A stretch of DNA of 32,699 nt from Phormidesmis sp. RL_2_1 (lineage in GTDB: Bacteria; Cyanobacteriota; Cyanobacteriia; Phormidesmidales; Phormidesmidaceae). Made by a program: the position numbers and the translations under genes. This document shows positions 1 to 29,557 of the stretch, piece by piece. The DNA is taken from positions 1 through 32,699 of the forward strand of contig JAAUPS010000026.1 of NCBI GenBank assembly GCA_012033015.1, given 5' to 3'. The notes beneath the pieces were generated by a model, which was not told the DNA's origin, did no database searches, and was given only the letters and a program-made list of their open reading frames with translations. How positions within the stretch are numbered: the first letter of the stretch is position 1; every line of letters starts with the position of its first letter.

Positions 1-78
1 AGTAGGCCAATGGATTAGGCCGATGCAGTAGGCCAATGGATTAGGCCAATGAAGTAGGCTGATGGATTGAGCCAATGA
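1..78. repeat. 26-bp tandem repeat, 3 copies
   Basis: Three adjacent 26-bp units begin at 1, 27 and 53. All follow the pattern AGTAGGC..ATGGATT.RGCC.ATG, with a few substitutions in the third. They may continue beyond the left edge. The unit is not found elsewhere in the window. The array ends just before a terminator hairpin. Confidence 0.9.
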
Positions 79-83
79 ATTAA

Positions 84-107
84 GCAGGGTTTCGACCCTG
101 CTTTTTT
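84..107 (+). terminator. Intrinsic terminator
   Basis: A 7-bp perfect stem (GCAGGGT 84-90, ACCCTGC 95-101) with a TTCG tetraloop is followed by six T at 102-107. The T-tract orientation fits a plus-strand gene ending left of the window. It lies 4 bp beyond the dgcN stop and could also slow minus-strand transcripts, although there is no good T-tract on that side. Confidence 0.85.
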
Positions 108-111
108 ATGG

Positions 112-1155
112 TCAATTTTTAAGAATCTCAGCGAGTAAGGTTTGGCCGCCAAAGCGAACCACGTCGTCGCAAGGGCGACCGGTTTGTTGGGCAACCTCGG
201 CTATGGCTCTATGGGCGGAGGCTTCATCTAAGCTAAATGTATTTAACGCAACCCCTACGACGCTGGCTGGGGCAAACGTCCCCCCCGCTGCTGCGATTGA
301 TTCGTACAGATCGATCACTTGAGCAAGCGAGGGAATGGGAAAATCAGGGAAATGCTGAATGTGGGTGAGGTTGGCTTTATGCACCAAAATCAGATGGGTC
401 GGTTGACTGCCTCTGATCAGGGGCAAGGTTGCTGTAGAAGCCGGATTGAGCAAAGATCCTTGGCCTTCTATAAAGAGAATGTCGTGATCATTGCCATGGC
501 GAATCAGGCATTGCTCAATTGCACCCGAGGCGTAGTCTACGCGAATGGCATCGAGAGGAACACCGTCTTCGCCTAGCATCAGGCCGGTTTGGCCCGTGGC
601 GATCAGCTTCGTTCGGAGCCCAGCGGCCTGGGCTGCACGATTGAGTTCTATGCTGGTGGACATTTTGCCCACCGCCATGTCCGTGCCGACGGTGAGCACG
701 CGATCGCACGCCAATAACCTAGCCCTACCGCCGCCAACCGTCAGCCCCTCAGGTTCTTTTCGCATATCCCACACCCATTGATTGGGCGTAATCGCCCCAG
801 CAATATCGGCATCTTCATTCATCTGAGTATGTAGGCCATTCATCACCGAAAGGCCCGCCTTCACGGCCTGCTTAACTTCGGCATACCAAGGCTCAGGCAG
901 CCTCCCCCCTGAAGGCGCTAGCCCAATCGCCAAAACCGTTGGATGAAAGGCCAAAGCAGCCTGCAAAGAAGCCACGATGGGCACATCGCGATCAATTCCG
1001 GTCAGTGCTGGCACCGTTTCGTCTGTGGCCGTTTCATCAATCACTGCAACGATTGGATTTTGGCTATAGCGCAGGAGGGAAGTGCCGGTTTTACCCTTAC
1101 TCCCCTTCAGGCCGTTGTGCATCAAAATGGCAATGCGATCATCACGGTTAAGCAT
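112..1155 (-). CDS. dgcN: DUF1611 / DgcN family protein
   Basis: 347-aa protein of the DUF1611 family. Members named DgcN are D-glutamate N-acetyltransferases that work with the epimerase-family enzyme DgcA in D-glutamate use. The sequence shows an N-terminal alpha/beta domain, then from about residue 150 a P-loop-like C-terminal domain (VGTDMAVGKMST, later IEGQGSLLNPAS). The ATG start overlaps the stop of the upstream epimerase gene by 8 bp (1148-1155), so the two are probably translationally coupled. Length is normal and the frame is intact. The family assignment is firm. The specific reaction rests on knowledge of the pair in other bacteria and is not proven here; cyanobacterial homologues could act on other N-acyl amino acids or peptides. 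Confidence 0.82.
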   Translation of the reverse strand: MLNRDDRIAILMHNGLKGSKGKTGTSLLRYSQNPIVAVIDETATDETVPALTGIDRDVPIVASLQAALAFHPTVLAIGLAPSGGRLPEPWYAEVKQAVKAGLSVMNGLHTQMNEDADIAGAITPNQWVWDMRKEPEGLTVGGGRARLLACDRVLTVGTDMAVGKMSTSIELNRAAQAAGLRTKLIATGQTGLMLGEDGVPLDAIRVDYASGAIEQCLIRHGNDHDILFIEGQGSLLNPASTATLPLIRGSQPTHLILVHKANLTHIQHFPDFPIPSLAQVIDLYESIAAAGGTFAPASVVGVALNTFSLDEASAHRAIAEVAQQTGRPCDDVVRFGGQTLLAEILKN

Positions 1156-2193: not shown

Positions 2194-2337
2194 TCTGACG
2201 ATAGGGTTTTGAGTGTGTTTTTTGAGTGTCGGTTTAGCATGTGAAAGTGTTTTACCATATTGTCCAAAGGTACGGACATTAAGAAAGCACGCATTTGCTT
2301 GCACCGGCAATGTCCGCTGGGGAAAGGGGTAAGTTGA

Positions 2338-2413
2338 CTATCAGTTTGTTAGCTATCAGTTTGTTGGCTATCAGTAACTAGCTATCAGGTTACTGAAGCT
2401 GGTTACTGAAGCT
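2338..2413. repeat. Two adjoining tandem duplications at the 3' end of the VWA gene
   Basis: Four CTATCAG-initiated units of 14-15 bp begin at 2338, 2353, 2368 and 2382. They run into a perfect 13-bp duplication (GGTTACTGAAGCT at 2388-2400 and 2401-2413). The second 13-bp unit contains the stop codon of the VWA gene (TAA, complement of 2403-2405). Confidence 0.88.
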
Positions 2414-3635
2414 GGGTTTTAGAGGCGATTCGAGTCCGTTTGCGGTCACTCTCTGAGAGCTCATTGCCTGCCTGTAGCTGGGTTACATTTTCCTGCAGTA
2501 CTGTTGCCGCGTTTTGATCTCCCATTTGCAAGGCCGTATTCGCTGCCGACTGCAGCATGGTCACCGCGCCAGTGCGATCGCCTGCCTTCAGCTTATCCTC
2601 CGCAATTTGCGTTTGCCGGTACTTCGCCAACGCCAAAATATTTTGCTGCACGGCCGCGTCCACCTTGGGCACATAATCCGCCTGCGCCGCAATTTCAATG
2701 GGGATAGCGGCAGTGCTTTGGGCCGTTAATCCCAAGCTTGGAGCATCATAGGTAACCTGCAGTTGGCCGATGGTCGCGGTGCCTTCGGCGAGCTGCGGAA
2801 TATACAAATTCAGCAAAATCACCCGAGGCTGATCTTTCATCAAATCACCGAGGCGAACTAGGGCTTGATTGCCCTCTTCTACCACCGGCAACTCAACGGT
2901 TTCAGGCGCTACCTGGGCCACTGGTTTAAGATCCGCAAGGCGGGTACCATCGGCAAGTTCGATATTGAGGTAGGCATTGGTGAAGCCAACCGACTGGATA
3001 CGAGAAAATAAGCGACTAAAGATCGCGATCGCCGCTTCGGCCTGCTCAATATAGTTCAGTGAACCGGCCCCAGCATCGGCAATTTGCTCCAGCACATCTT
3101 GATTCCAATGATCACCAAAGCCCAGGGTATTAATCGTAAGATTATAGCCAACCGCCACATCGGCGAGCTTCAGCGCCCTAGCATTATCACCATGCTCATT
3201 TTCCCCATCGGTTAGCAGCAGTAGCTGAGAGATGCGGTCATCTTTACCCGTTGCCAGGGCCTCAATACCTGCTTTGAGGCCATCATCAATGCAGGTGCCG
3301 CCCCCAGCGCGAAGCCCATCAATACGCTGCTTAATCGCCTCAAGATCATTCGCTGCTTGGTTCGGCACTAATACTTCAGCTTTGTGATCGAAAGCAATAA
3401 TAGAGATACGATCACGCGGCGTCAGCCGATCGACAATACGCTTCGCTGCCTGTTTCACCGTTTTTAGCGGCGTTCCCATCATGGAGCCACTGCGATCCAG
3501 CACAAAACATAAGTTTAAAGGAGCCTGCTCGCCTTCACCGATAGCTGAAACCGACACCGATAGCTGACGCTGAATATTCGCTTGAGTCGAAGGAACGTGG
3601 GCATCACTAAAGGCCCATTGCAAACCAACTTTCAT
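2403..3635 (-). CDS. VWA domain-containing protein
   Basis: 410-aa protein with a von Willebrand factor A domain at about residues 40-220. The metal-ion-dependent adhesion site is complete: DRSGS (DxSxS) at 47-51, a threonine in GGGTCIDDG, and an aspartate in LLTDGENEHGDN. Residues 225-340 look like a beta-rich VWA-associated region, and the C-terminal tail is helical and Q/A-rich. There is no signal peptide or membrane segment, so a cytoplasmic role as an assembly scaffold or MoxR-type partner is possible; no MoxR ATPase gene is visible nearby. The ATG start follows about 420 bp of non-coding sequence shared with the divergent clp cluster. Function beyond metal-dependent protein binding is unknown. 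Confidence 0.85.
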   Translation of the reverse strand: MKVGLQWAFSDAHVPSTQANIQRQLSVSVSAIGEGEQAPLNLCFVLDRSGSMMGTPLKTVKQAAKRIVDRLTPRDRISIIAFDHKAEVLVPNQAANDLEAIKQRIDGLRAGGGTCIDDGLKAGIEALATGKDDRISQLLLLTDGENEHGDNARALKLADVAVGYNLTINTLGFGDHWNQDVLEQIADAGAGSLNYIEQAEAAIAIFSRLFSRIQSVGFTNAYLNIELADGTRLADLKPVAQVAPETVELPVVEEGNQALVRLGDLMKDQPRVILLNLYIPQLAEGTATIGQLQVTYDAPSLGLTAQSTAAIPIEIAAQADYVPKVDAAVQQNILALAKYRQTQIAEDKLKAGDRTGAVTMLQSAANTALQMGDQNAATVLQENVTQLQAGNELSESDRKRTRIASKTQLQ

Positions 3636-3757: not shown

Positions 3758-3784
3758 TCTGTTTATCAGCTTTTTTCACCTCAC

Positions 3785-3842
3785 ATGCCGTGACCTTCAT
3801 GCCGTGACCTTCATGCCGTGACCTTGAATGCCATGCCCTTGA
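3785..3842. repeat. 14-15-bp tandem repeat, 4 copies
   Basis: Units of the form ATGCCGTGACCTTC begin at 3785, 3799, 3813 and 3828, with the last two drifting (CTTGA endings). Confidence 0.88.
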
Positions 3843-4058
3843 ATGCCTGCTCTCAAGCTGTTTTGCTCACGCTCCGTAACGCCCCATCTCGCGCGCTTCC
3901 TTGTTACCCCTAATTGCGCCGAGCCCACTGCGTTAGCAGGTAGGGTTATCCGCCAAAAACAGCCCAAAAACCCCAATCTATTGGCAGCGCAGCAAGTTCG
4001 CTGGCGAGCTACTATGTAAAGCATACTATTCTTAAAACCGTAGCAAGCTGAGCCCCTT
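3843..4058. other. Upstream region of clp cluster, no gene seen
   Basis: This 216-bp spacer is GC-rich up to about 4000 and then more AT-rich. I see no convincing coding frame: a 91-codon minus-strand frame crosses it but ends in the tandem repeat and has no family look. It must carry the promoter and leader of clpR. No clear sigma-70 boxes or riboswitch could be assigned by eye. Confidence 0.5.
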
Positions 4059-5420: not shown

Positions 5421-5439
5421 AGCATTCTGCTATATCACC

Positions 5440-5484
5440 CCTGACACAGCAACTCCTGACACAACAACTCCTGACACAAAACCC
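5440..5484. repeat. 15-bp tandem repeat, 3 copies
   Basis: Units CCTGACACARCAACT begin at 5440 and 5455, and a diverged third at 5470. They fill most of the 95-bp spacer between the second clpR-like gene and clpP3. Confidence 0.9.
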
Positions 5485-5515
5485 CCTTACACATCAGTAA
5501 CGAACAAGAGATCTC

Positions 5516-6193: not shown

Positions 6194-6226
6194 AAGGCGC
6201 TAGAAAGGCGCTAGAAAGGCGCTAGA
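6194..6226. repeat. 11-bp tandem repeat, 3 perfect copies
   Basis: AAGGCGCTAGA is repeated without change at 6194, 6205 and 6216 in the 235-bp spacer between clpP3 and the J-domain gene. No gene or clear terminator is seen in the rest of the spacer. Confidence 0.92.
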
Positions 6227-6353
6227 AAATAGAAGTAGAAATTTCGAGCCAGATGGGAAAAGATCTCTTATAATCTTTGCCAATCACAAATTGGCTCGGT
6301 TGTCATTTTCACCTCAACTTTAGGTCTTTTCGCTCTTATCTGCCTGTGCTGAC

Positions 6354-7214
6354 ATGACTTTGGCCCACCATTACCGAACTTTAGGATTGCGCCGGGGGGC
6401 TTCTTTTCAAGATGTAAAGGTGGCTTATCGACGATTGGTGCGTGAATATCATCCAGATATCAACCCAGATGAGCAGGCGATTGAGCGTTTTATTAGCATC
6501 AATGATGCCTATACGGTTCTTTCAGAGTTCATGCAGGCTAAGGTGCAGGCTAAGGCTCAGGCCCGTAAGCCAGCCCAAACTAAAGTTGAGCGCAAGCAGG
6601 CAAGTGCATTTTCAGGTTCATCTGGGCCGTTAAATCTAGAAAAACTTAGTGTAGAGAGCTTGAAGCTACAGCTAGACAAGTTAGGTATCGGCAGCTTTAG
6701 TCATCAGCAGATGCCTTTTCCTGCTGGGTGTGATGCCGCTTGTGAAAATGCAACTGAAAATGCAACTGAAAATACAACTGAAAATACAACTGAAAATGTA
6801 ATGGCTGGCAATCCAACGGAGAAAAGTCCTCCCATGCCACCTAATGCCAAAGCATCTCAGGCATTCAAAGTATCACAGGAATTCAAGGCTACTAGCAAAG
6901 AACATATCCTCAAGCAAGATGCTTACCTGCAGCTCAAAGATTTGCTTAGGCAGCAAAAGTTTCCTCGGGCGATCGCACTGGTTGAAGGCTTGGCCCATCG
7001 GATGCCTAACGATCTCGAAATAAAACAGTGGCAAGCCATCGTTTACCAGCGCTGGGGCCGCCAACTGATTGGACAAGGAGAGCCCCAAAAAGCCCGCATT
7101 TATCTGAAAAAGGCTTTACGCACTGATCCTCATAATCCCTCGCTCTGGAGCGAGGTTAGCCGCGACTTTGGGAAAATTGCTCACCTCGACAATTCATCGA
7201 GTTCGGTGATGTAG
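6354..7214 (+). CDS. J-domain (DnaJ-like) protein with TPR-like C-terminus
   Basis: 286-aa protein with an N-terminal J domain (residues 4-60) whose HPD motif at 33-35 (REYHPDINP) stimulates DnaK ATPase. There is no Gly/Phe or zinc-finger region, so it is a type III J protein. A low-complexity linker includes five ENxT units near residues 127-145, encoded by a 12-bp DNA repeat. From about residue 195 two helical-hairpin repeats (LKDLLRQQKFPRAIALVEGL and a second ending ALRTDPHNPSLW) look like TPRs. Its position downstream of the clp genes suggests a link to protein quality control, but a 235-bp spacer makes co-transcription uncertain. Client and DnaK partner are unknown. Confidence 0.85.
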   Translation: MTLAHHYRTLGLRRGASFQDVKVAYRRLVREYHPDINPDEQAIERFISINDAYTVLSEFMQAKVQAKAQARKPAQTKVERKQASAFSGSSGPLNLEKLSVESLKLQLDKLGIGSFSHQQMPFPAGCDAACENATENATENTTENTTENVMAGNPTEKSPPMPPNAKASQAFKVSQEFKATSKEHILKQDAYLQLKDLLRQQKFPRAIALVEGLAHRMPNDLEIKQWQAIVYQRWGRQLIGQGEPQKARIYLKKALRTDPHNPSLWSEVSRDFGKIAHLDNSSSSVM

Positions 7215-7242: not shown

Positions 7243-7278
7243 GTTGTGTAGCTGGTAATGGTTGTGTAGCTGGTGATA
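7243..7278. repeat. 18-bp tandem duplication
   Basis: GTTGTGTAGCTGGTAATG at 7243-7260 is repeated with three changes near the end at 7261-7278, just after the J-domain gene. Confidence 0.88.
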
Positions 7279-7883: not shown

Positions 7884-7919
7884 ATGGGCGTCTATGCGCT
7901 GATGGGCGTCTATGCGCTG
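7884..7919. repeat. 18-bp perfect tandem duplication spanning a stop codon
   Basis: ATGGGCGTCTATGCGCTG occurs at 7884-7901 and again at 7902-7919. The stop of the glycosyltransferase gene (TAG, complement of 7910-7912) lies in the second copy. Confidence 0.92.
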
Positions 7920-9088
7920 TGATTTTGATTGGAATTTATTTTACTGGAAGCGATTCGATAAAACCACTCTTCAAACCGGTTGCCCCAAGCCGCCAAAGAA
8001 TAGGTGGTTTCGGCCTGTTGGCGGCAGGCTAGCCGATCGATTTGATCAATTTGAGCAATGGCACTGACCAAGCCAGTGACATTGCCTTCTCCCCCTACGT
8101 CCGCATCGACCCAGGGGCCTGGCTTGACTAACCAGCCTGTTTCTCCATGCCGTACGATTTCTGCTAGTCCCCCACGCCGATAGGCAATAACCGGCACGCC
8201 ACAGGCTAACGCTTCGATCGCGACGATGCCAAAAGCCTCGCTCCAGTGCGGTGTGACCAAGAGGGCTCTACAGCGACCTAGCTGCTGTTGCAGTTCATGG
8301 GTCTCTAAAAATCCGCAATATTTGATCGATTGGGGATTAGGGGCGCGTTTAATCTTCTGTTTGATCAATTGCCAGTAACTCAGATCTGATTGCTGACCAA
8401 AAATTCTGAGGGGTTGACCGGCCATCATCGCTGCAGCTATGGCATCTTCTAGTCCCTTTTCAGGAGAAATTCTCCCCACCCATGCCAAGGTATGACCAGC
8501 CGTATCACGGTATTGGTATTGGCTAATGTCAATGGCGCTACCTAAAATCTCCCATTGCATGGGGTCTATGGCTGTGAAGGTATTTGCTTGCGATCGCGTA
8601 TAGGCACCTAGCGTGCCAGGAAACCGTAGCGCTAGATCGGCAATCGCCTGATCCATGGCATTGCTGAGCGAGCCCATGCTGACAAAATGGGCCACTGGTG
8701 TGGTGAGAAAAGGCGTCAGGTAAAAAGGTAGCCAATCGTAGGCAAAATTCACGAGCAAATCATACTGGGCTTGCACTTGGCGGGCATAATCCCAAGCATT
8801 TGCTAAAGCTGAACCAACGACGATAGCTGCAGCCCGCCCTTGGATTTGTGCTACAAGCTGGCAAGCGCCGGGTATTTGAACAATTTTGACTTGGGCTAGT
8901 GCCCTATTGGCCGATGATGTGCCGCCTTGAGGCACGACAGATCCTTGAGGCGCTGCGATCACCACGCTATGCCCTAGCTCAACCAACCGTTGGGTCAAAT
9001 TGATAACCGTTAACTCTACTCCCCCTCCAAGCCCAGAGCCCAAAGGGCCGACCGGGGTAGAAACAAGTAACAGCCGCAACGGCTCCAT
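7910..9088 (-). CDS. GT4 family glycosyltransferase (possibly tetrahydrobiopterin glucosyltransferase)
   Basis: About 392-aa GT-B fold, retaining glycosyltransferase family 4. The N-terminal domain opens with the glycine-rich acceptor-side motif LLVSTPVGPLGSGLGGGVEL. The C-terminal nucleotide-sugar domain has WVGRISPEKGLEDAI and the E-x7-E motif in EAFGIVAIEALACGVPVIAY. Cyanobacterial proteins with this N-terminal motif are often annotated as UDP-glucose:tetrahydrobiopterin glucosyltransferase, a plausible but unproven specificity. The ATG at 9088 directly follows a GTG at 9091, so either could start the protein. No Shine-Dalgarno is obvious. It is a single gene, with 75 bp to the upstream gene on the same strand. 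Confidence 0.82.
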   Translation of the reverse strand: MEPLRLLLVSTPVGPLGSGLGGGVELTVINLTQRLVELGHSVVIAAPQGSVVPQGGTSSANRALAQVKIVQIPGACQLVAQIQGRAAAIVVGSALANAWDYARQVQAQYDLLVNFAYDWLPFYLTPFLTTPVAHFVSMGSLSNAMDQAIADLALRFPGTLGAYTRSQANTFTAIDPMQWEILGSAIDISQYQYRDTAGHTLAWVGRISPEKGLEDAIAAAMMAGQPLRIFGQQSDLSYWQLIKQKIKRAPNPQSIKYCGFLETHELQQQLGRCRALLVTPHWSEAFGIVAIEALACGVPVIAYRRGGLAEIVRHGETGWLVKPGPWVDADVGGEGNVTGLVSAIAQIDQIDRLACRQQAETTYSLAAWGNRFEEWFYRIASSKINSNQNHSA

Positions 9089-9091
9089 CAC

Positions 9092-9136
9092 TGATTGCTA
9101 GAAGGTTGATTGCTAAAAGGCTGATTGCAAAGAAAT
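9092..9136. repeat. 15-bp tandem repeat, 3 copies
   Basis: Units TGATTGCTARAAGG[T/C] begin at 9092 and 9107, with a diverged third at 9122. They occupy the 5' leader of the glycosyltransferase gene. Confidence 0.88.
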
Positions 9137-10567: not shown

Positions 10568-10968
10568 TGCTATCCCTACCTGTTATCGTTGCCGGTATCT
10601 AGTGGCCCTAGATCAAAAGAAAACTGAAAGGAAAGACTCATAGTAAATGCTCTATGAAGACTGCGATGAACTACAGCGTCCATCTTCACGCTACGGATCA
10701 ATAATGATATCTTTCGGATGAAAAGCTTTCCTAAAATAACCCTTCTAGATATTAAAGTTACGACGACTCAGCCATAGAATGCCCGCTTAAACTGCGTCTT
10801 CGCCGCTTAAGAAACAAATTTGCCACGCGCTATACCGCAAAAGATAAGCTGCGAAGCCTTCTATCCTTTTGCTAAAGCCGCCTTCAGAAATTCATCAACG
10901 GATGATGAAAAGGGTGAGAGGTGAATTGCAATTCTATTACCATGAGCTGAGCGACCTCAGTTCCTCAC

Positions 10969-10998
10969 TATGGCCTATTGTCCTATGGCCTATTGTCG
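10969..10998. repeat. 15-bp tandem duplication
   Basis: TATGGCCTATTGTCC at 10969-10983 is followed by TATGGCCTATTGTCG at 10984-10998. Confidence 0.9.
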
Positions 10999-11077
10999 AT
11001 TTACTCTCAGCCTAGCCTATCTGCTTTGCCTAGCAGGCACTTGCTTGGCTTAACCTGGGTTGCCACACCTAGTTTTT

Positions 11078-11113
11078 GCCTAGTTTGCACCTAGTGCCTA
11101 GCTTGCACCTAGT
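11078..11113. repeat. 18-bp tandem duplication rich in CCTAG
   Basis: GCCTAGTTTGCACCTAGT at 11078-11095 is repeated with one change at 11096-11113. Further CCTAG words upstream (from about 11030) suggest older, decayed copies. Confidence 0.85.
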
Positions 11114-11222
11114 TTTGGATAATTTGATCTAGAGCTAGTTGATTGAGAGCTAGTGGGCCTAGTCTAGGACTGATGAGACTGATGGGTCTGCTCTCAACGG
11201 TTTGAATTGGGCCAGCCATTGT

Positions 11223-11292
11223 TGAAACAACCGAATTGAAACAACCGAATTGAAACAACCGAATTGAAGCAATCTAATTGAAACAATCTGAC
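11223..11292. repeat. 14-bp tandem repeat, 5 copies
   Basis: TGAAACAACCGAAT is perfect at 11223, 11237 and 11251, then diverges at 11265 and 11279. Units abut with no spacers, so this is not CRISPR. It is the longest of the private tandem arrays in the window. Confidence 0.93.
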
Positions 11293-14206: not shown

Positions 14207-14253
14207 TAGCAGTTATTAGCTTTAGCAGTTATTAGCATTTAGCAGTTGTTGGC
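14207..14253. repeat. 16-17-bp spaced tandem repeat, 3 copies
   Basis: TAGCAGTTATTAGC occurs at 14207 and 14223, and a diverged form, TAGCAGTTGTTGGC, at 14240. It lies directly after aroH. Confidence 0.85.
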
Positions 14254-14274
14254 ATTTATTAGCATTTATATGTA

Positions 14275-14315
14275 GAAAGTCTGGCCGTATGTGACAGCCA
14301 GACTTTCGTTTGTTT
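14275..14315 (+). terminator. Terminator hairpin after aroH
   Basis: A perfect 11-bp stem, GAAAGTCTGGC (14275-14285) and GCCAGACTTTC (14297-14307), has an 11-nt loop and is followed by the T-rich GTTTGTTT. It sits between convergent aroH and crtR, so it probably ends aroH transcripts. The reverse side lacks a strong T-tract. Confidence 0.7.
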
Positions 14316-14350
14316 AGGTTCGTTTGTTTTAGGTTCGTTTGTTTTAGAGA
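14307..14350. repeat. 14-15-bp tandem repeat, 3 copies
   Basis: Units CGTTTGTTTTAGGTT begin at 14307 (one T shorter), 14321 and 14336 (diverged end). They form the T-rich tail of the aroH terminator. Confidence 0.88.
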
Positions 14351-18697: not shown

Positions 18698-19775
18698 TCA
18701 TGATATAACCGAGCGTAAGATGGGCGTATTGAATTCGATCAACGCTTGAGCCGCTTGAGCCGCTTCGGCTGCCAATGCAGCATTCGTTTCATCCAATAGA
18801 GTCCAAATCGCTCGCAATAATGCCTCTGTTCCCTGTTGAGTGACGGCTGAAAATTTGAAAAACCTTCTTCCCGGTTACGGCAGAAAGCTTGTCGGCTAGG
18901 GCCTCAGCATCTTCATCGAGCAGCGCGTCAATTTTGTTGATAGCAAGGATCTGGGGCTTGTTGGCTAAGCCCTGACCATAGGCGGTAAGCTCTTGTTGAA
19001 TGGTGAGATAGTCGGCCACTGGATCCACGGCATTGCCATCGACAAGGTGCAGCAAAAGTTTGGTGCGCTCAATGTGGCGTAAAAAATCATGGCCCAATCC
19101 TAACCCGGCATGGGCACCTTCAATCAGTCCGGGAATGTCGGCAAAGAGGGTGCCGTCTCCTGTGGGTTTACGGACAACGCCCAGGTTAGGAATAAGGGTG
19201 GTAAATGGGTAGTCGGCAACCTTTGGCTTGGCAGAAGAAAGGGCGGAGATTAAGGTGGACTTCCCGGCATTGGGAAAACCGATAATGCCGACTTCAGCCA
19301 GCAGCTTGAGTTCGAGTTTGATGCGGCGGATAGCACCGGGCGCGCCGGGTTGCGATCGCTCTGGGGCCCGGTTACGGTTACTCAAAAAATGACTATTCCC
19401 TAGGCCGCCTTTGCCGCCGGGCGCGATCACCAACTGCTGACCAGGTTCGGTCAAATCGCCCATGAGCTGTTCTTTCTCAAGATCATGCACGAGAGTGCCA
19501 CAGGGCACCTCAATCAGCAGATCTTTGCCGGTCGCACCAGTTTTATTTTTAGACCCCCCTTTTTCACCATCCTGCGCCTTGAAGCGATGCTTGAACTTAA
19601 AGTCGAGCAAGGTTTGTAAGTTGCTATTGGCCAACAGCACAACGGAGCCGCCATTTCCCCCTGTGCCACCGGAGGGGCCGCCTGCGGGGACATACTTTTC
19701 TCGGCGAAAAGAAGTCATCCCATCACCGCCCGTACCGCCTTCTACTTCTACTTCAGCTTGATCAATAAATTGCAT
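18698..19775 (-). CDS. obg: GTPase Obg/CgtA (frameshifted near the 3' end)
   Basis: Essential ribosome-associated GTPase. The N-terminal glycine-rich OBG fold (RREKYVPAGGPSGGTGGNGG) spans 1-157. The G domain follows with G1 GFPNAGKST, the DIPGLIEGA switch and NKID. The raw frame ends at 18789 in the sequence QIFSRHSTGN. Removing one base from the AAAAA run at 18858-18862 (plus strand) restores KVFKFSAVTQQGTEALLRAI, the G5 SAVT motif, and continues to TGA at 18698, about 358 aa. The restored tail contains AAQAAQA encoded by a 9-bp repeat at 18743-18769. Because obg is essential, a sequence error is the likeliest reason for the break. Confidence 0.9.
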
Positions 19776-19828: not shown

Positions 19829-19880
19829 TATCAATCCATCTATCAATCCACCATTCTAACGCCTAGACTAACGCCTAGAA
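19829..19880. repeat. Two 12-bp tandem duplications
   Basis: TATCAATCCATC / TATCAATCCACC lie at 19829 and 19841, and TAACGCCTAGAC / TAACGCCTAGAA at 19857 and 19869. They are in the leader of obg. Confidence 0.87.
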
Positions 19881-19917
19881 CCGCTTTTCCTCATGAGGTC
19901 TCATGAGGAAAAGCGGT
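19880..19917. terminator. Near-perfect 38-bp palindrome (hairpin)
   Basis: Perfect 18-bp arms (19880-19897 and 19900-19917; ACCGCTTTTCC...GGAAAAGCGGT) are separated by only GT. It lies 22 bp downstream of the DUF4168 gene stop and about 105 bp upstream of obg, all on the minus strand. It most likely ends or processes the DUF4168 transcript, but no U-tract follows on either strand. It could instead be a cruciform or a protein site. Confidence 0.55.
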
Positions 19918-20460: not shown

Positions 20461-20594
20461 TTGGGCCTATCTATTGGGCCTATCTATAGGATTGGAAGAC
20501 GGGAGGATTGGAAGACGGGCATATTTTTTTATTTGCATATTTTAGAGTAGGACTGTGCTATCTAGAACTGTGCTATCTAGAACTGTGCTATTCA
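20461..20594. repeat. Three different tandem duplications in one spacer
   Basis: 13-bp units TTGGGCCTATCTA lie at 20461 and 20474. 16-bp units AGGATTGGAAGACGGG lie at 20488 and 20504. 15-bp units GAACTGTGCTATCTA lie at 20550, 20565 and 20580, the outer two diverged. They fill most of the spacer between holA and the DUF4168 gene. Confidence 0.9.
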
Positions 20595-21625: not shown

Positions 21626-21937
21626 AGCCCATTACTGCTGCGAGTTACTGCTACGAGGTTCTCAGGTTCTCCTAACGATACCAAAGGGCAAACGCTGACC
21701 TTCAGCCGTGAGGCATCTCAACCCTGAATGGCTGGGATATATGAATTGCTGATGAACACCTAAGGAGAAAGTTTCCATAGATAAGTTCATGTTTTTTTCT
21801 TTCTTTGATAGACTAAATTCTATGAGATTTTTTATAAAACTTGTCCAAGCCTCCCTTCACCATATTATTTCCTGCCATATTTTTGATTTCGAATTTTCAT
21901 CGCTTCATCTTTAGCAACTCTCAGAGGGACTCCTATT
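21626..21937. other. Divergent spacer between holA and lysR gene
   Basis: No gene seen. It contains a 13-bp duplication (TTACTGCTGCGAG / TTACTGCTACGAG at 21632 and 21645) and then a strongly T-rich tract (about 21790-21850). Promoters for both genes must lie here; TTGATA at 21805 and TATAAA at 21833 are visible, but their 22-bp spacing is too long for a standard sigma-70 pair. LysR-type regulators often bind their own upstream region. Confidence 0.5.
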
Positions 21938-22924
21938 GTGATTCATGCCACGCTCCACCAGCTCAAAGTTTTTGAGGCAACAGCGCGCCACGGGAGCTTC
22001 ACCCGTGCGGCTGAGGAGCTTTATCTAACCCAGCCAACGGTGTCGATTCAAGTCAAGCAGCTCACCAAGGCGATTGGATTGCCTTTGTTTGAGCAAATTG
22101 GTAAGCGTCTGTACTTGACTGAAGCGGGCAAAAAGCTGCTGGAGACTTGTCAAGAAATTTTTAACGGGTTGGAACAGTTTGAAATGTCTGTCGCTGATCT
22201 TAAAGGGATGAAGCAAGGGCGACTGAACTTAGCTGTGATTACCACCGCTAAATACTTTGTGCCTAGGCTGTTGGGGCCATTTTGCAAAAAATTTCCTGGC
22301 ATTGATATTTCACTCAAGGTCACAAACCACCAGCGTCTACAGGAGAGTATGGCCGCAAACGAAGACGACCTCTATATTATTAGCCAAACGCCGACTCAGC
22401 CTGATTTGGACATTCATCCTTTTTTGGAAAATCCATTAATTGTGCTAGCACCGAAGGGGCATCCGTTGGCGCGCAAGCGCAATATTCCGATTGAAATGCT
22501 CAATCATGAGCCCTTTATCATGCGCGAATCAGGCTCAGGCACCAGAGGCGCGGTCGAAAAACTCTTTGAAGAAAAGAATATCAATGTCAAAGTGCGGTTG
22601 GAGTTAGGGAGCAATGAAGCGATTAAGCAGGCGATCGCAGGTGGTCTAGGTATTTCTGTCCTCTCTCAGCACACGATCATTTCCGAAGGCACAAAGGGCG
22701 AGTTCGCCATTTTAGATGTCCAGGGTTTTCCGATTGAGCGGCACTGGTACGTAGCCAACTTAGCGGGGAAACAGCTCTCGGTCGTCGCAGAAACCTTTTT
22801 GCAATATCTTTTAGAGGAAAGCCCAGGCATGGCCAAGCGATTGTTACCAGGGCTTGGGGCCGCTGCGCTCAACGGGGTGGGCGAGTCAATTGCCTTAGAA
22901 AGCACCGCCGTTGCTCAGGTATAG
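21938..22924 (+). CDS. LysR-family regulator, CmpR/NdhR (CcmR) type
   Basis: 328-aa LysR-type transcription factor. The winged HTH at 5-65 (LHQLKVFEATARHGSFTRAA, YLTQPTVSIQVKQL) and the effector domain (ITTAKYFVPRLLGPFC, MRESGSGTRGAVEKLF, LGSNEAIKQAIAGGLGISVL) are very like cyanobacterial CmpR and NdhR/CcmR. Those control high-affinity bicarbonate uptake and NDH-1 CO2 uptake under low inorganic carbon. I cannot separate CmpR from NdhR by eye. The GTG start is supported by GAGGGA 8-9 bp upstream. No cmp, sbtA or ndhF3 genes are adjacent, so its targets are elsewhere. The stop codon lies in an 18-bp tandem repeat. Confidence 0.86.
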   Translation: MIHATLHQLKVFEATARHGSFTRAAEELYLTQPTVSIQVKQLTKAIGLPLFEQIGKRLYLTEAGKKLLETCQEIFNGLEQFEMSVADLKGMKQGRLNLAVITTAKYFVPRLLGPFCKKFPGIDISLKVTNHQRLQESMAANEDDLYIISQTPTQPDLDIHPFLENPLIVLAPKGHPLARKRNIPIEMLNHEPFIMRESGSGTRGAVEKLFEEKNINVKVRLELGSNEAIKQAIAGGLGISVLSQHTIISEGTKGEFAILDVQGFPIERHWYVANLAGKQLSVVAETFLQYLLEESPGMAKRLLPGLGAAALNGVGESIALESTAVAQV

Positions 22925-22974
22925 TGCTTGGCTGAAATATAGTGCTTGGCTGAAATATAGTGCCTAGCTGAAAG
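22921..22974. repeat. 18-bp tandem repeat, 3 copies, spanning the lysR stop
   Basis: ATAGTGCTTGGCTGAAAT is perfect at 22921 and 22939 and diverged at 22957. The lysR-type gene's TAG (22922-22924) lies in the first unit. Confidence 0.92.
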
Positions 22975-25125: not shown

Positions 25126-25169
25126 TACTGTTTAGGGTCACTTGTGCTGAGGAACTTGCAAAGCTAATG

Positions 25170-25195
25170 CTCAATACTCAATTACTCAATACTCA
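25170..25195. repeat. 11-bp duplication ending at a stop codon
   Basis: CTCAATACTCA occurs at 25170-25180 and 25185-25195. The second copy contains the stop (TGA, complement of 25193-25195) of the upstream ATP-grasp-like gene. Confidence 0.8.
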
Positions 25196-26659
25196 AAGGC
25201 CAATATCAGCCACAAAGGCCGGATCCGGGTTGAGTGAAGCAAATAGCTTACGGCGAAAAGTGCCCTTTTGGGTAATCAACTTTTGGGCCATTTTGTCGAT
25301 AGCAATCACCGACAGCACCGTTTGCAAATAGCCCTCAATCAAATCGTCAATGCTAATGCCTAGCTGATTAAAATCGCGACTGTCCATCAGCAGCAGCCGC
25401 TCCGACTGACTAAGCCAAGACCCGTCCTCTTTTTTTACCGATAGATTGGTGCCCAGCATATCCCATGACGCCATAGTGCCATCTAAAGTCGGTGTCAGAG
25501 GCTGGCGGGCACGGCGGGCATAGCTCGCGACCGGATAAGCCCCTGCTGGGCCGATACCGATCATCATTCGCAAATCCGCCACATAAATTGCCTGTCGCTT
25601 ATCGGGCAATGTTCCTAAATGATAGAAACGGCCCTGCTTAGTATCCGAACTCCAGCCAGAATTACCCACCAAACTTTGGACAATAAAGCGATCAAAGCGA
25701 AAGTCTATGTGCATAAAGTCCGCCAGCTCTTTGGCATTGGTGAGGGTATATACCCCTTGACCGGCATTGCTGTAAGGATCTTTGACCACCGCGATGCCGC
25801 CCATCCGCTCCACCCATAGCGGCACCTCATTTTTGTTCACATCCCAAATCGTCTCGGGGGTGCGAATCATCAGCCCCGTAGACTGCAGCTCAGCGTTATA
25901 AAAATCGTAGGCTTTCGCGGCCATCAGCTTATTGCGTCCGCCGCTGAGACACACCAGCACCGGATTTAAAATAGCAGTGCGTGTGAGAATGGGAATGCGA
26001 CTCCAGGGCCTTTGGGTGACGTAGCGAAAGGCAGCGCGAATAGGAATCCACTCAGACTGTGCATCATCTGTTGAGCCATCGGCGGGTGGACGAATTTCGA
26101 GTACGCCATCGGTAAAGCGCACCGGTAAATTTTCATCATCTTGAAAGCAGGGCACAAACCAAACGGGCTCTCCGGTGATGTCAGCTAGCATAGCTGCATA
26201 GCCAGAGGTTTCCATTTCGTTTTTATCGTAAATGACTGCCAATGCACCCTCGGGCAATCCTCGCCGCTTGAGCATGGGTAAAAAAGTGCGCTCTAGCAGC
26301 GTTCGGTAGCCACTATCTTGATGGGCATCTTCACCAAAAGGCATGGACTTTTGGCCGGAAGGGCAAGAGTTGGTTTCAATTACAATGACCCGACGCGAAC
26401 CATCGTCTGTCGTTACCGGAAACAAATCAGCGCCGCCCCAGCGAAAGTATTTGGTTTTGAGGCTTAACACCTGACGTACTGCCTGCGGATCTACTTCGGG
26501 GTGTAGGTGTAGGTAGCGATCGGCAATGCGCTCATTTCCTAAGCTGAAAAAATACTTCACCATGGGGTGCGATCTGGCATTCAGCACCCGCGGATAAAAG
26601 TGGTCTCGATCCTCAAAGCTATTGGGAGCAACCTGTACCACAGACCTTGTATTTGCCAA
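25193..26659 (-). CDS. ATP-grasp-like protein of unknown function
   Basis: 488-aa soluble protein. I do not recognise a named family with certainty, but the layout suggests an ATP-grasp-type ligase. There is a central basic/glycine segment, GGIAVVKDPYSNAGQGVYTL, typical of the nucleotide-binding strand. An acidic strand DRFIVQSLVG follows, and a late NLSVKKEDGSW region. An N-terminal IETNSCPSGQKSMPFG segment with Glu/Asn/Cys is striking and could be part of the active site. There is no signal peptide or membrane helix. First gene of a minus-strand cassette with the deacylase (67-bp spacer) and the GshB-like ligase. It may join amino-acid-like units to make a small peptide-like metabolite. Confidence 0.72.
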   Translation of the reverse strand: MANTRSVVQVAPNSFEDRDHFYPRVLNARSHPMVKYFFSLGNERIADRYLHLHPEVDPQAVRQVLSLKTKYFRWGGADLFPVTTDDGSRRVIVIETNSCPSGQKSMPFGEDAHQDSGYRTLLERTFLPMLKRRGLPEGALAVIYDKNEMETSGYAAMLADITGEPVWFVPCFQDDENLPVRFTDGVLEIRPPADGSTDDAQSEWIPIRAAFRYVTQRPWSRIPILTRTAILNPVLVCLSGGRNKLMAAKAYDFYNAELQSTGLMIRTPETIWDVNKNEVPLWVERMGGIAVVKDPYSNAGQGVYTLTNAKELADFMHIDFRFDRFIVQSLVGNSGWSSDTKQGRFYHLGTLPDKRQAIYVADLRMMIGIGPAGAYPVASYARRARQPLTPTLDGTMASWDMLGTNLSVKKEDGSWLSQSERLLLMDSRDFNQLGISIDDLIEGYLQTVLSVIAIDKMAQKLITQKGTFRRKLFASLNPDPAFVADIGL

Positions 26660-26710
26660 AGCAGCACCCGATTAAAATTGCACCTTACATTAAACGGCAA
26701 ATAAAGGCGC

Positions 26711-26725: not shown

Positions 26726-26847
26726 TAGAACTTGTTAAATTCGACACAAAATTAATTGACTGGGCAAAAGTATGTCTATGCGGAAACGGGCCTACGTTCA
26801 CTGGATCTGTTTTTAAGGACACGAAGGTTACATAGGCTTTCTTAATA

Positions 26848-26886
26848 TATTGGCCCTTAATATTGGCCCTTAATATTGGCTCTTAA
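26848..26886. repeat. 13-bp tandem repeat, 3 copies
   Basis: TATTGGCCCTTAA is perfect at 26848 and 26861, with one change at 26874. It lies upstream of the DUF4359 gene. Confidence 0.92.
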
Positions 26887-26937
26887 GACGCTATATTCCA
26901 ATCCTTTTAACACTTCGACCTTTTCGCATCTCACCAC

Positions 26938-26973
26938 CTTTGGAGCAACCTTTGGAGCAACCTTTGGAGCAAA
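26938..26973 (+). repeat. 12-bp tandem repeat carrying a Shine-Dalgarno sequence, 3 copies
   Basis: CTTTGGAGCAAC occurs at 26938 and 26950 and, with a final A, at 26962. Each unit contains GGAG. Only the last, at 26966-26969, is correctly spaced (6 nt) from the ATG at 26976. The frame is open through the repeat from a TTG at 26940, which would add EQPLEQPLEQ, but this is probably untranslated. Confidence 0.85.
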
Positions 26974-26975
26974 TG

Positions 26976-27419: not shown

Positions 27420-27448
27420 CGATCGCACCTTTTGGCCCACGCTTTGGC

Positions 27449-28423
27449 CTACTCTTGGTCTATAAGGGCGGCTAAAACCTGGTCATGAATTTCGCCATTA
27501 CTGACAACGACACCGGTTGTCTCTAATCGGTCGGACTTTGAAAAGTCCAGCGGCTGACCATACATATCTGTCACCCGACCCCCAGCTTCTTCTACCACGA
27601 TCACACCCGCCGCATGATCCCAAATTTTCTCTCGGTAGCCTGGATACTTGGGCGAAGGCAGGCGCAGATAAAGCACGGCATTGCCTGAGGCGACTGCGCC
27701 ATATTTGGCCTGAGAGTCCATCCTCATAGAGTCGGTGGTGATGCCAGCGGCCTGGGCTATTGCGCTTTGCAAGCTCTGATCACCATGCCCTGCTTCGACA
27801 CTTTCGACAAAGCGAAAATGCGCCGTATCGCTAGAACTAGTCACCCTAATCGGTTCGGGACTACCGCCATGGATCGCCTGCATGGTTGCCCCTTCTCCGC
27901 GCACGGCCACAAACAAAATACCGGTTGCAGGTCCCTCTTTTAGCGTTAGCGTCAGTGCCGGACAGGCCAATACCCCGACTTGAATATCGCCATCAGCCAC
28001 CATGGCCAAAGCCACCGCATATTGATCCTTGCGTAAAAAGCCTTTGGTGCCATCGATCGGATCCAGCGTCCAATAGCGACTGGCAACCTTGCCATTGCCA
28101 TGGTCAATCCACCGGGTGACGGCTTCAGGCGTGGCCGCCGGTATGACCTGCTTGACATAGTCACTCACCTGCTGCAAACGGGCGGCCATTTCAGGGGTTT
28201 TGAGTTCGCCTGCGTCTTCTTCGCCCACGACCGGATCATCCGGAAACGCCTCAGCTAGAGCCTTGCACACCACTGCCTGAGCACCAAAGTCAGCCACCGT
28301 TACCGGACTTTTGTCTTTTTTTTCTATGGCTTCAGGCACCATGGTCTGACGCACTTGCTCGCAAATAGTGGCAGCGTGAAGGGCGGCGGCGATCGCAACT
28401 TCTTTTTCTTTCTCAAATGGCAT
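27449..28423 (-). CDS. cysQ: 3'(2'),5'-bisphosphate nucleotidase (CysQ/SAL1 type)
   Basis: 324-aa inositol-monophosphatase-superfamily enzyme. It removes the 3' phosphate from PAP/PAPS, a by-product of sulfate assimilation. Metal-site motifs are complete: SPVTVADFGAQ, PVVGEEDAG, WTLDPIDGTKGFLR and WDHAAGVIVVEEAGGRVTD. The DPIDGTKGF form and length match the plant SAL1/yeast HAL2 subgroup found in cyanobacteria more than the short E. coli CysQ. It is inhibited by Li/Na in characterised relatives. Same strand as the PfkB gene, with an 84-bp spacer. The frame is intact. Confidence 0.87.
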   Translation of the reverse strand: MPFEKEKEVAIAAALHAATICEQVRQTMVPEAIEKKDKSPVTVADFGAQAVVCKALAEAFPDDPVVGEEDAGELKTPEMAARLQQVSDYVKQVIPAATPEAVTRWIDHGNGKVASRYWTLDPIDGTKGFLRKDQYAVALAMVADGDIQVGVLACPALTLTLKEGPATGILFVAVRGEGATMQAIHGGSPEPIRVTSSSDTAHFRFVESVEAGHGDQSLQSAIAQAAGITTDSMRMDSQAKYGAVASGNAVLYLRLPSPKYPGYREKIWDHAAGVIVVEEAGGRVTDMYGQPLDFSKSDRLETTGVVVSNGEIHDQVLAALIDQE

Positions 28424-28507
28424 AGCGATAGTTTCCGTTACTCTTAAGCCCGAATAATCTTAGGACACTCTACAGGGCAAAAGCCCCCATTGCCGGATAG
28501 ACAGACA

Positions 28508-29482
28508 CTAATTTGCGCTTGCTTCATCTGGCCCATCAGCTTCATCTGGCCCATCAGCTTCATCTGGCCCATCAGCTTCATCTACCGCCGCATCTGTGAT
28601 CCGATAAATTTTGGTCCAGTCACGCGTACCCCAATGTTGACAGGCAAAAGCAGCACTCCGACTGGCCTTGAGCAAAGCCTCTTGGAAACGATGGCTCAGA
28701 TAAAAGTGGCAAAATGCACCGTGAAAAATATCGCCAGCACCCAGTGTATCTACAGCCTTGATCTGAGGTATCTCAATTTCGCCGCTTTCGTGAGCACAGC
28801 GGTACAAAATAGGATCGCTCCCTCGGGTAATGGCCATTTGGGGCACAGCCAAGCACTGCAAGTACTCAAAGACATCGTCAGTACTCAAACACTCTGGCGG
28901 GAAAAAGTTGGCCGAGGCCACCACCACATCGGCCAGCGCCAACACTGATTCAAAGTCAGGTTTCCAGCTACCGGCATCAATCACCACAGGAATTTGCTTA
29001 GCCTTAGCCCATGCAGCGATCTGGGTACTGACCGCCATTTGATGCCCGTCGATCAAAACCACGTTGACCCCCTCTAAAATCTCAGCGGATACTGGGCTAG
29101 GCTCTACCTGCAAAGTTGAGGTATGACTGGCGACAACCGCTCGCTCTCCTGTGGTGGCGGTAACGACAATCGATGAGACCGGGGGGGGTTCAAGTCGCAT
29201 GGGGGATAAATCTGTCAGCGTTACCCCGTATGCTTGCAAATCTTCTAGGAGCAGCATGGTGAGGGGATGCCTGCCTAGTGCAGAAACTAGCGTAGCGGTG
29301 TTGCCACCGGCTTTACTGCTACCGAGTTGGGCAAAGGCAACCGCTGCATTGGTCGCAGGGCCGCCCGCAACCAGGAGGTTTTTATCGGCAGTGACTTTTT
29401 CATCGGCAGCAGGCGGATGCTCGGCCTGATAGATACAGTCGAGGGTGGTCATGCCGACAAAGAGTCCGTGCTTTTTGGCCAT
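28508..29482 (-). CDS. PfkB-family carbohydrate kinase with acidic repeat tail
   Basis: 324-aa ribokinase-like sugar kinase. The N-terminus GLFVGMTTLDCIYQ and the GGPATNAAVAFAQLG glycine motif bind sugar. The C-terminal signature DTLGAGDIFHGAFCHFYL holds the catalytic Asp and anion hole. The substrate is unknown. After the end of the fold (TKIYRITDAAV) there is an acidic tail of DEADGP units, encoded by an 18-bp DNA repeat, which is unusual for the family. Upstream (28424-28507) is a short spacer to the CysQ-like gene. The gene starts 112 bp from divergent rsmI. Confidence 0.85.
   Translation of the reverse strand: MAKKHGLFVGMTTLDCIYQAEHPPAADEKVTADKNLLVAGGPATNAAVAFAQLGSSKAGGNTATLVSALGRHPLTMLLLEDLQAYGVTLTDLSPMRLEPPPVSSIVVTATTGERAVVASHTSTLQVEPSPVSAEILEGVNVVLIDGHQMAVSTQIAAWAKAKQIPVVIDAGSWKPDFESVLALADVVVASANFFPPECLSTDDVFEYLQCLAVPQMAITRGSDPILYRCAHESGEIEIPQIKAVDTLGAGDIFHGAFCHFYLSHRFQEALLKASRSAAFACQHWGTRDWTKIYRITDAAVDEADGPDEADGPDEADGPDEASAN
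28519..28581 (-). repeat. 18-bp in-frame tandem repeat, 3.5 copies
   Basis: GCTTCATCTGGCCCATCA (plus strand) is perfect at 28519, 28537 and 28555, and partial at 28573. On the coding strand each unit is read as DEADGP at the C-terminus of the PfkB kinase. Confidence 0.95.
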
Positions 29483-29529
29483 AGCTGCCTTTTGTTGTGC
29501 TCTTGCTTTGGAGTAATTGCTTGCTGCGG

Positions 29530-29557
29530 TAGGATTTCACTATTAGGATTTCACTAT
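29530..29557. repeat. 14-bp perfect tandem duplication
   Basis: TAGGATTTCACTAT occurs at 29530-29543 and 29544-29557 in the divergent spacer between the PfkB kinase and rsmI. Confidence 0.92.

What the first reader, a model, noticed from the sequence alone, without database searches (positions are those of the whole stretch)
1..29557. Almost every spacer carries its own private short tandem duplication
I count over twenty loci with 2-5 abutting copies of a 9-26-bp unit: 1, 2338, 2388, 3785, 5440, 6194, 7243, 7884, 9092, 10969, 11078, 11223, 14207, 14307, 19829, 19857, 20461, 20488, 20550, 21632, 22921, 25170, 26848, 26938, 29530, plus in-gene cases. Units differ at every locus, so this is not a dispersed repeat family or the known heptamer STRRs of heterocystous cyanobacteria. 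It suggests an ongoing process that duplicates about 11-18 bp locally, biased to non-coding DNA: slippage, fill-in of staggered breaks, or an unknown enzyme.
Basis: partly seen in the sequence, partly recalled or inferred. Interest (0 to 1): 0.72.

Follow-up and report, generated by a model that had tools for sequence, protein, structure and literature searches.

The report
Short tandem duplications in cyanobacterial spacers
The spacer DNA of this cyanobacterium is full of private head-to-tail duplications of about 9-18 bases, and the ends of many of them tend to carry the cutting signature of DNA topoisomerase I, which suggests that this everyday enzyme helps to create new tandem repeats in nature.

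Summary
In detail: 22 arrays in 5.8 kb of spacer, where shuffles give 0.02. "Almost every spacer" is too strong: 17 of 25 in the window, 290 of 525 in a 1.0 Mb sample. Perfect duplications are 36 times denser than in 53 mostly proteobacterial loci; 242 of 276 have periods 9-16. In genes, 150 of 169 arrays keep frame, so assembly artefact is unlikely.

Two-copy duplications form two classes. Of 164, 54 extend by 3 or more bases, as slippage predicts. The other 110 need little or no homology and show a sequence preference at both unit ends. It resembles the E. coli topoisomerase I cleavage motif (C at -4). The published motif peaks at the breakpoint and recurs in coding DNA and other cyanobacteria. 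Against this: no motif in phage contigs, no significance in imperfect duplications, no C-4 excess in one congener.

E. coli topA R168C makes repeat-independent 2-19 bp tandem duplications (PMC6954433), though its authors matched no cleavage motif. My reading: staggered TopA-type cleavage, fill-in and rejoining, then slippage. Strand geometry, joining step and the cause of the high rate are inferred.

The parts
1..82 (.). multi-copy array, 13/26-nt unit, in the spacer at the contig start
   Evidence: TRF score 116
2338..2375 (.). 15-nt unit, 2.5 copies, spacer
   Evidence: TRF
2388..2415 (.). 13-nt perfect two-copy duplication (extension 2) across the end of the VWA-domain gene 2403-3635(-)
   Evidence: neither end has C-4 or G+3
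3784..3847 (.). 14-nt unit, 3 perfect copies plus decayed copies
5437..5493 (.). 15-nt array between two clpP-like genes
   Evidence: gene families
6194..6228 (.). 11-nt unit, 3.2 perfect copies
6532..6555 (+). in-frame 12-nt two-copy duplication in the DnaJ-domain gene; neither end has C-4 or G+3
6743..6798 (+). in-frame 12-nt array, 4.7 copies, same gene
6848..6886 (+). in-frame 18-nt duplication, imperfect, same gene
7243..7278 (.). 18-nt imperfect two-copy duplication not listed by TRF
   Evidence: sequence printed
7884..7919 (.). 18-nt perfect two-copy duplication (extension 0) at the end of gene 7910-9091(-)
   Evidence: left end has C-4 and G+3
9091..9128 (.). 15-nt unit, 2.5 copies
10968..10997 (.). 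15-nt perfect two-copy duplication, extension 0
   Evidence: C-4 at one end
11077..11113 (.). 18-nt unit, 2.1 copies
11222..11286 (.). 14-nt unit, 4.6 copies
14207..14269 (.). 17-nt unit, 3.1 copies plus decayed copies
14305..14347 (.). 15-nt unit, 2.9 copies
18743..18765 (.). 9-nt unit, 2.6 copies, microhomology class (extension 5)
19829..19852 (.). 12-nt imperfect two-copy duplication
   Evidence: sequence printed
19856..19879 (.). 12-nt perfect two-copy duplication, extension 0, C at -4 at both ends
20461..20487 (.). 13-nt perfect two-copy duplication (extension 1), abutting the next array
20488..20519 (.). 16-nt perfect two-copy duplication, extension 0; C-4 at the left end, G+3 at the right end
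20548..20591 (.). 15-nt unit, 2.9 copies (extension 10)
21632..21671 (.). 13-nt two-copy array followed by an 8-nt two-copy array
22920..22973 (.). 18-nt unit, 3.0 copies, starting in the last codons of the LysR-family gene 21938-22924(+)
25166..25196 (.). short-period array (TRF period 7, 4.3 copies)
26841..26886 (.). 13-nt unit, 3.1 copies (extension 8)
26936..26972 (.). 12-nt unit, 3.1 perfect copies
28521..28583 (-). 18-nt in-frame array, 3.5 perfect copies, at the C-terminal end of the ribokinase-like gene 28508-29482(-)
29530..29557 (.). 14-nt perfect two-copy duplication, extension 0; C-4 or G+3 at both ends

Best explanation
The arrays are scars of a homology-independent short tandem-duplication process, later amplified by ordinary slippage. 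Most likely DNA topoisomerase I (type IA, TopA) or an enzyme with the same cleavage preference cuts an underwound, AT-rich stretch at two points about 9-18 nt apart, four bases downstream of a C. The free 3' ends are extended over the exposed stretch (fill-in) and the ends are rejoined, by the covalently bound topoisomerase or by ligase, without Ku. The stretch between the cuts then stands there twice. Existing copies seed further copies by slippage, giving arrays of 3-7 units. In genes mainly frame-keeping duplications survive; in spacers they accumulate. Shown here: the repeats, their size limits, two classes, the end preference and its match to the published TopA motif. Inferred: that TopA itself makes the cuts, the strand geometry, fill-in and rejoining, and why this lineage has so many.
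For: (1) Excess and size: perfect spacer duplications (period 9-80) at 20.1 per 10 kb in G000 against 0.56 in 53 mostly proteobacterial loci; 242 of 276 have period 9-16, 10 have period above 24. (2) No homology needed: of 169 two-copy duplications 68 have extension 0 and 32 extension 1; after removing a dispersed family, 110 of 164 have extension 0-2. (3) End preference around the unit ends beyond a null of synthetic duplications placed in the same spacers and filtered alike: 0 of 300 as extreme. A matrix trained on G000 spacers scores held-out G001 (n=22) and coding duplications (n=50) above all of 500 jittered controls each. (4) Match to a motif taken from outside: E. coli TopoI, TCNTTA/T, cut 4 nt downstream of C (PMC9352719, passages; C at -4 in bacterial topoisomerase I, PMC6101483, passages). 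The score built from it is highest at offset 0 of 25 offsets in all five blunt sets and 7th in the microhomology class. Permutations exceeding: G000 0/2000, window alone (n=7) 14/2000, G001 25/2000, coding 1/2000, other cyanobacteria 0/2000. With period >=11, G001 spacers plus other cyanobacteria (n=52) 0/3000. At exact ends outside G000 spacers (97 duplications, 194 ends): C at -4 70 against 49.7 expected, G at +3 (C at -4 on the other strand) 81 against 49.7. (5) Blunt units are AT-richer than flanks (GC 0.400 against 0.442, p=0.008), microhomology units are not. (6) Experimental precedent: E. coli topA R168C gives de novo tandem duplications of 2-19 bp independent of existing repeats (PMC6954433, abstract, Results and Discussion read). 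(7) No Ku in 58 of 58 relatives, so Ku-dependent end-joining is not available as far as that search sees.
Against: Phage contigs (80 loci, 1.23 Mb) show no motif: 26 blunt duplications, offset 0 ranks 24 of 25, C-4 2 of 30 and G+3 2 of 30 ends (5.1 expected); 22 of the 31 two-copy ones have period 9. Imperfect, older duplications do not confirm it: 159/2000 permutations exceed for period >=14 (n=41), 336/2000 for 11-13 (n=63). G001 has no C-4 excess (5 of 28 against 5.8), only G+3 (10 of 28), and ranks 3rd of 25 when limited to period >=11; period 9-10 duplications of G000 rank 6th. At most about a third of exact ends are explained: 184 of 296 have C-4 or G+3, 125.8 expected. Co-occurrence of the marks at both ends does not pick opposite-strand over same-strand cuts. 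Bachar et al. compared their hotspots with known TopA cleavage motifs and found no match. The TopA1 N-terminal part of G000, G001 and G006 keeps the residues equivalent to R35 and R168, so the E. coli mutator change is not present, and the low-duplication G006 has nearly the same sequence. Number of TopA-family genes does not follow the rate.
Confidence: 0.5

Rival explanations
1. Replication slippage (strand misalignment between short direct repeats) makes all arrays; the lineage is merely slippage-prone, for instance through weak exonuclease or Pol I functions.
For: 54 of 164 two-copy duplications have extensions of 3 or more, against about 6% expected for a blunt process (one search gives 0.545, 0.285, 0.112 for extensions 0-2). 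Extension grows with period (means 1.14, 2.13, 3.68, 5.54). Arrays of 3-7 copies need slippage or recombination. In G000 the polA reading frame (576 aa against 979-998) and both recJ-like frames are interrupted.
Against: 110 of 164 have extension 0-2 and carry an end preference that the microhomology class lacks in the mean score (matched null for 27 of the class: mean 348/400, maximum 124/400). The interrupted frames fit the general indel rate of this assembly (10 of 47 orthologous genes against 2 of 135 in six congeners). MutS is intact.
Confidence: 0.22
2. Another nicking enzyme (restriction, transposition, RNA-guided or repair endonuclease) makes two staggered nicks; fill-in and joining give the duplication. 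TopA is only similar in preference.
For: All the blunt-class evidence fits any enzyme with C at -4; small tandem duplications from filled-in staggered breaks are known in mammalian cells (PMC8355091, passages). Abutting arrays are commoner than random placement (23 gaps of 5 nt or less, 8.1 expected, maximum 18 of 200 simulations).
Against: No such enzyme was identified. The combination T-5, C-4, T-1 fits bacterial topoisomerase I, which every genome searched has (58 of 58). Ku is absent.
Confidence: 0.2
3. Sequencing or assembly artefact of a draft genome.
For: The genome is a 436-contig draft with 6.98% contamination and many one-base frameshifts (10 of 47 orthologous genes). Reads were not available.
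Against: Coding arrays keep frame in 150 of 169 (G000) and 61 of 70 (G001). G001, with 1 of 31 genes shifted, has 18.9 arrays per 10 kb of spacer. Samples from assemblies with contigs of 4.4-5.5 Mb (G039, G057) also show arrays.
Confidence: 0.03
4. The arrays are kept for a function (binding sites, RNA structure, spacing).
For: They are fewer in the last tenth before start codons (9 of 257 positions), so position matters to the cell.
Against: Units are private to each spacer and differ between species in the same spacer. Density is similar in codirectional, divergent and convergent spacers (28.6, 32.6, 25.6 per 10 kb). The depletion near start codons is what removal by selection would give.
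Confidence: 0.05

Closest known systems
Tandem-duplication mutator phenotype of E. coli topA R168C (Bachar et al., PMC6954433; abstract, Results and Discussion read)
   Same: De novo head-to-tail duplications, 2-19 bp in galK, independent of existing repeats.
   Different: That is a laboratory mutant enzyme with no cleavage motif found; here natural genomes with unmutated R35 and R168 equivalents in the TopA1 part read, a standing load of duplications, and a TopA-like end preference.
Small tandem duplications from filled-in staggered breaks in mammalian cells (PMC8355091, passages)
   Same: Homology-independent duplication of the stretch between two cuts on opposite strands.
   Different: There CST, Pol alpha-primase and Ku-dependent end-joining; overhangs of 43-50 nt were induced. 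Here no Ku, units of about 9-18 nt.
Heptamer STRRs of heterocystous cyanobacteria (Mazel et al., recalled)
   Same: Short tandem repeats in cyanobacterial spacers.
   Different: Period 7 and shared units there; here period 9-16 and private units.
Intergenic TAACTGA direct repeats (PMC4679880, passages)
   Same: Abundant direct repeats in bacterial spacers, cyanobacteria included.
   Different: One heptamer shared over the genome; here units differ at every window locus.
Bacterial VNTRs and microsatellites made by replication slippage
   Same: Copy-number growth of existing units; the microhomology class here.
   Different: The blunt class starts without a repeat and has an end preference.

Membership tests
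Heptamer STRRs | Unit of 7 nt, shared between loci | tested here: not met
   Period 7 in G000 spacers 17 against 7 in one shuffle; the same count is 60 against 8 in cyanobacterial loci L004-L030; units private in the window.
Slippage-born tandem repeats | Short direct repeat at the junction (extension of 3 or more) | tested here: not met
   Met by 54 of 164 two-copy duplications, not by 110: a part, not the whole, belongs here.
TopA-linked de novo tandem duplication | Duplication independent of existing repeats, roughly 2-19 bp | tested here: met
   110 of 164 with extension 0-2; periods 9-19 in that class, shorter ones not separable from chance.
TopA-linked de novo tandem duplication | Breakpoints at TopA cleavage sites (C at -4) | tested here: inconclusive
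   Enriched in most sets but only about a third of ends explained, not significant in imperfect duplications, absent in phage contigs.
TopA-linked de novo tandem duplication | Altered topA (R168C) as the cause | tested here: not met
   Equivalents of R35 and R168 are kept in the TopA1 N-terminal parts of G000, G001 and G006; the rest of the gene was not read.
TopA-linked de novo tandem duplication | Rate depends on TopA activity | not testable with these tools
   Needs an experiment.
Ku-dependent break fill-in duplications | Ku present | tested here: not met
   PF02735: 0 of 58 genomes, control positive in Bacillus subtilis.
Dispersed repeat family | Same unit at many loci | tested here: not met
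   288 of 388 spacer arrays have no partner sharing the set number of 9-mers; the exception is a 19/51-nt family.

The most novel reading that the evidence does not exclude
In cyanobacteria, and perhaps more widely, the first step of tandem-repeat birth is paired cleavage by topoisomerase I at sites 9-18 nt apart, a route that needs neither repeats nor Ku. Two lineages (G000, G001) run it at a rate that makes it a main shaper of their spacers. The end signature seen here would be the first sequence evidence for that route in natural genomes.
Probability: 0.42. Interest if true: 0.85.

Novelty: new variant of a known kind. Interest (0 to 1): 0.68.

Why it matters
How tandem repeats start from non-repeated DNA was called unknown by the E. 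coli topA study. A natural genome with hundreds of young, exact duplications gives enough junctions to read a breakpoint signature, which a few laboratory mutants could not. If TopA makes them, a housekeeping enzyme feeds new repeats into spacers and, in frame, into proteins, and the question becomes testable with a cleavage map and mutation-accumulation lines.

Tried and rejected
Mismatch-repair loss: MutS is over the cut-off with one 950-aa open frame in G000; rejected. Ku-dependent joining: no Ku in 58 genomes; rejected. Loss of Pol I or RecJ: their frames are interrupted in G000, but 10 of 47 orthologous genes are shifted in this assembly and 2 of 135 in six congeners, nine of ten by one base gained or lost (read by eye); set aside as likely base-level errors, not excluded. 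A 1-bp polA shift cannot explain G001, whose polA frame is 993 aa.

TopA copy number and TopA2: the number of TopA-family genes does not follow the rate (G004, G013, G039 and G057 have one match each, G006 and G018 two). In my notebook I wrote that TopA2 has H at the R168 position; the E. coli alignment shows this was a wrong mapping, corrected.

Geometry: pairs of marks at both ends did not exceed independence clearly (3'-overhang 28 against 22.3, 5'-overhang 16 against 19.6, same strand 24 and 25 against 19.3 and 22.7). A melting limit with longer units more AT-rich: no correlation of GC with period (blunt rho 0.14, p 0.15). A 'maximum' score for the microhomology class looked strong (0/2000) but its null ignored the shared sequence at both ends; with a matched null it vanished (124/400). 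Divergent spacers are only slightly denser than convergent ones (ratio 1.27, z 1.7). Ancestral states by alignment to other species failed for nearly all spacers (89 alignments, the 70 shown being mostly the dispersed family).

Rows dropped: arrays of the dispersed family were removed before and from the G000/G001 sets used later; duplications with further copies (multi) were left out of the junction tests; identical duplicates were dropped from the 'other cyanobacteria' and phage sets. Some loci of the cyanobacterial set come from the same genomes.

Full report
What was checked. The window is one whole contig (C31) of a 5.56 Mb, 436-contig draft genome, G000. The closest named match of its ObgE among the genome contigs returned is Phormidesmis priestleyi ULC027bin1, 85% identical. 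Six further genomes share its genus in the tool's terms, G001-G006. Genes in the window include clpP-like genes, obgE, holA, a LysR regulator, pyruvate kinase and glutathione synthase.

The repeats are real and far beyond chance. TRF gives 27 arrays at score >=45; 22 lie in 5,837 nt of spacer, where 50 shuffles give 0.02 on average. The rest of the genome is alike: 388 spacer arrays in 137 kb of spacer (28.3 per 10 kb) against 18.9 in G001. In the first, smaller sample the other congeners had 11-16 per 10 kb, G006 1.7, other cyanobacterial samples 0-23, and 51 loci (L033-L083, mostly gammaproteobacteria) 2.4. Counting only perfect duplications of period 9-80, the rates per 10 kb of spacer are 20.1 (G000), 11.7 (G001), 6.2 (G002-G006), 3.2 (other family members), 5.7 (other class members), 2.3 (L004-L030) and 0.56 (L031-L083).

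They are private. In the holA-lysR spacer G001 has a 19-nt unit twice, where the window has a 13-nt unit; in the next spacer G001 has an 11-nt unit six times, where the window has three arrays of 13, 16 and 15 nt. G006 has none in the three spacers compared (window).

They are not an artefact and not spacer-specific as mutations. In coding DNA 150 of 169 arrays have a period divisible by 3 (61 of 70 in G001), in spacers 155 of 388 (43 of 131). An assembler does not know the reading frame; selection does. Arrays are about equally dense in codirectional, divergent and convergent spacers and become rare only in the last tenth before a start codon.

Size. Perfect spacer duplications rise from 9 to 13-15 nt and fall sharply after 16: 45 at 15, 23 at 16, 6 at 17, none at 21-24. 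For two-copy duplications alone the spectrum is nearly flat from 9 to 16 (15, 5, 18, 13, 16, 16, 15, 15), then 3 at 17 and 11 at 18; multi-copy ones make the peak at 12-15. Periods below 9 cannot be told from chance.

Two classes. If a duplication needs no homology, the match beyond two copies should be short: 0.545, 0.285 and 0.112 for 0, 1 and 2 extra bases. Of 169 two-copy duplications 68, 32 and 14 have these values and 55 have more. After removing the dispersed family, 110 have 0-2 and 54 have 3 or more. The second class is what slippage predicts.

End preference. In the blunt class base composition departs from background only near the unit ends, with both ends read in the same sense, towards the unit. 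In 110 duplications the strongest positions are -5 (T), -4 (C), -3 (not G), -1 (T) and +3 (G, not C). A null that puts random duplications into the same spacers and filters them alike never reaches the observed departure (0 of 300). A matrix trained on G000 spacers works in G001 and in coding duplications (0 of 500 controls each), and the trained score is not raised in the microhomology class (133 of 500). In 97 exact duplications outside G000 spacers only -4 (C), -1 (T) and +3 (G) clearly stand out (p 1e-4, 0.0015, 1e-6; position 2 gives p 0.04).

Match to topoisomerase I. Published work gives E. coli TopoI a motif TCNTTA/T, cut four bases downstream of a required C (PMC9352719, passages), and C at -4 for bacterial topoisomerase I generally, not topoisomerase III (PMC6101483, passages). 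I met this motif after seeing the preference, but the score was built from the paper. It is highest exactly at the breakpoint among 25 offsets in five blunt sets: G000 spacers (88), G001 spacers (22), coding (50), other cyanobacteria (74) and proteobacterial loci (20); in the microhomology class it ranks 7th. With periods of 11 or more, where chance duplications are negligible, it ranks 1st in G000 and in other cyanobacteria, 2nd in coding and 3rd in G001. G at +3 is C at -4 on the other strand, so both strands seem to be cut at such ends. About a third of exact ends can be explained in this way.

Results against it. Phage contigs have no motif; they also have almost no duplications of 11 nt or more, so they may lack the process. 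Imperfect, older duplications give only a weak trend in the same direction. G001 lacks the C-4 excess. The strand geometry is unresolved. The E. coli study with topA mutants found no match of its hotspots to known cleavage motifs.

Precedent and mechanism. E. coli topA R168C produces tandem duplications of 2-19 bp independent of repeats (PMC6954433). Its authors name direct involvement of the enzyme, single-strand breaks and supercoiling as possible routes and call the mechanism of de novo repeat formation unknown. Topoisomerase I leaves a free 3' end and stays on the 5' end. Two such cuts on opposite strands, 9-18 nt apart in an underwound stretch, would allow fill-in and rejoining by the enzyme itself. 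This would fit the lack of Ku and the AT-rich units. These last steps are inference.

Why so many here is open. MutS is intact. TopA1 of G000, as far as read (first 276 residues), keeps the residues equivalent to R35 and R168 and is close to that of the low-rate G006. Differences in supercoiling, in repair of trapped topoisomerase or in the strength of selection on spacers are untested.

Print search. I saw no report of short tandem-duplication load in this lineage, or of a TopA signature at natural tandem duplications, in the listings; these searches cover only the held open-licence library and few term sets.

Noticed in passing
G000, e.g. L220:72, L138:29, L224:10640, L256:12193, L134:1742: A dispersed repeat family of a 19-nt module (AAGGAATGCTCACCAAGAC) and a 32-nt module, together 51 nt, occurs near contig ends and inside contigs of this genome.
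   Followed up: partly
window 14830-14869 and 13560; L194, L152, L255, L196 (polA), L263 (recJ): One-base frameshifts interrupt many conserved genes: 10 of 47 orthologous genes against 2 of 135 in six congeners. Sequencing error or a true indel mutator cannot be told apart without reads.
   Followed up: partly
L276 (G000:C44): A second type IA topoisomerase keeps the R168 equivalent but has T and K where E. coli has R169 and R173, which by analogy with the mycobacterial enzyme read the C at -4 (TopA2 aligned by eye). Its cleavage preference may differ.
   Followed up: partly
window 20461-20519 and genome sample: Arrays abut each other more often than random placement gives: 23 gaps of 5 nt or less against 8.1 expected, maximum 18 in 200 simulations. 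Existing arrays or their sites may attract new duplications.
   Followed up: partly
L004-L030: Heptamer repeats (60 perfect ones against 8 in a shuffle) stand out in these other cyanobacterial loci, while G000 has few.
   Followed up: no
window 19889-19915: A spacer hairpin CCGCTTTTCCTCATGAGGTCTCATGAGGAAAAGCGG, which TRF lists as a 10-nt tandem repeat, looks like a palindromic stem-loop and not a duplication (read by eye).
   Followed up: no
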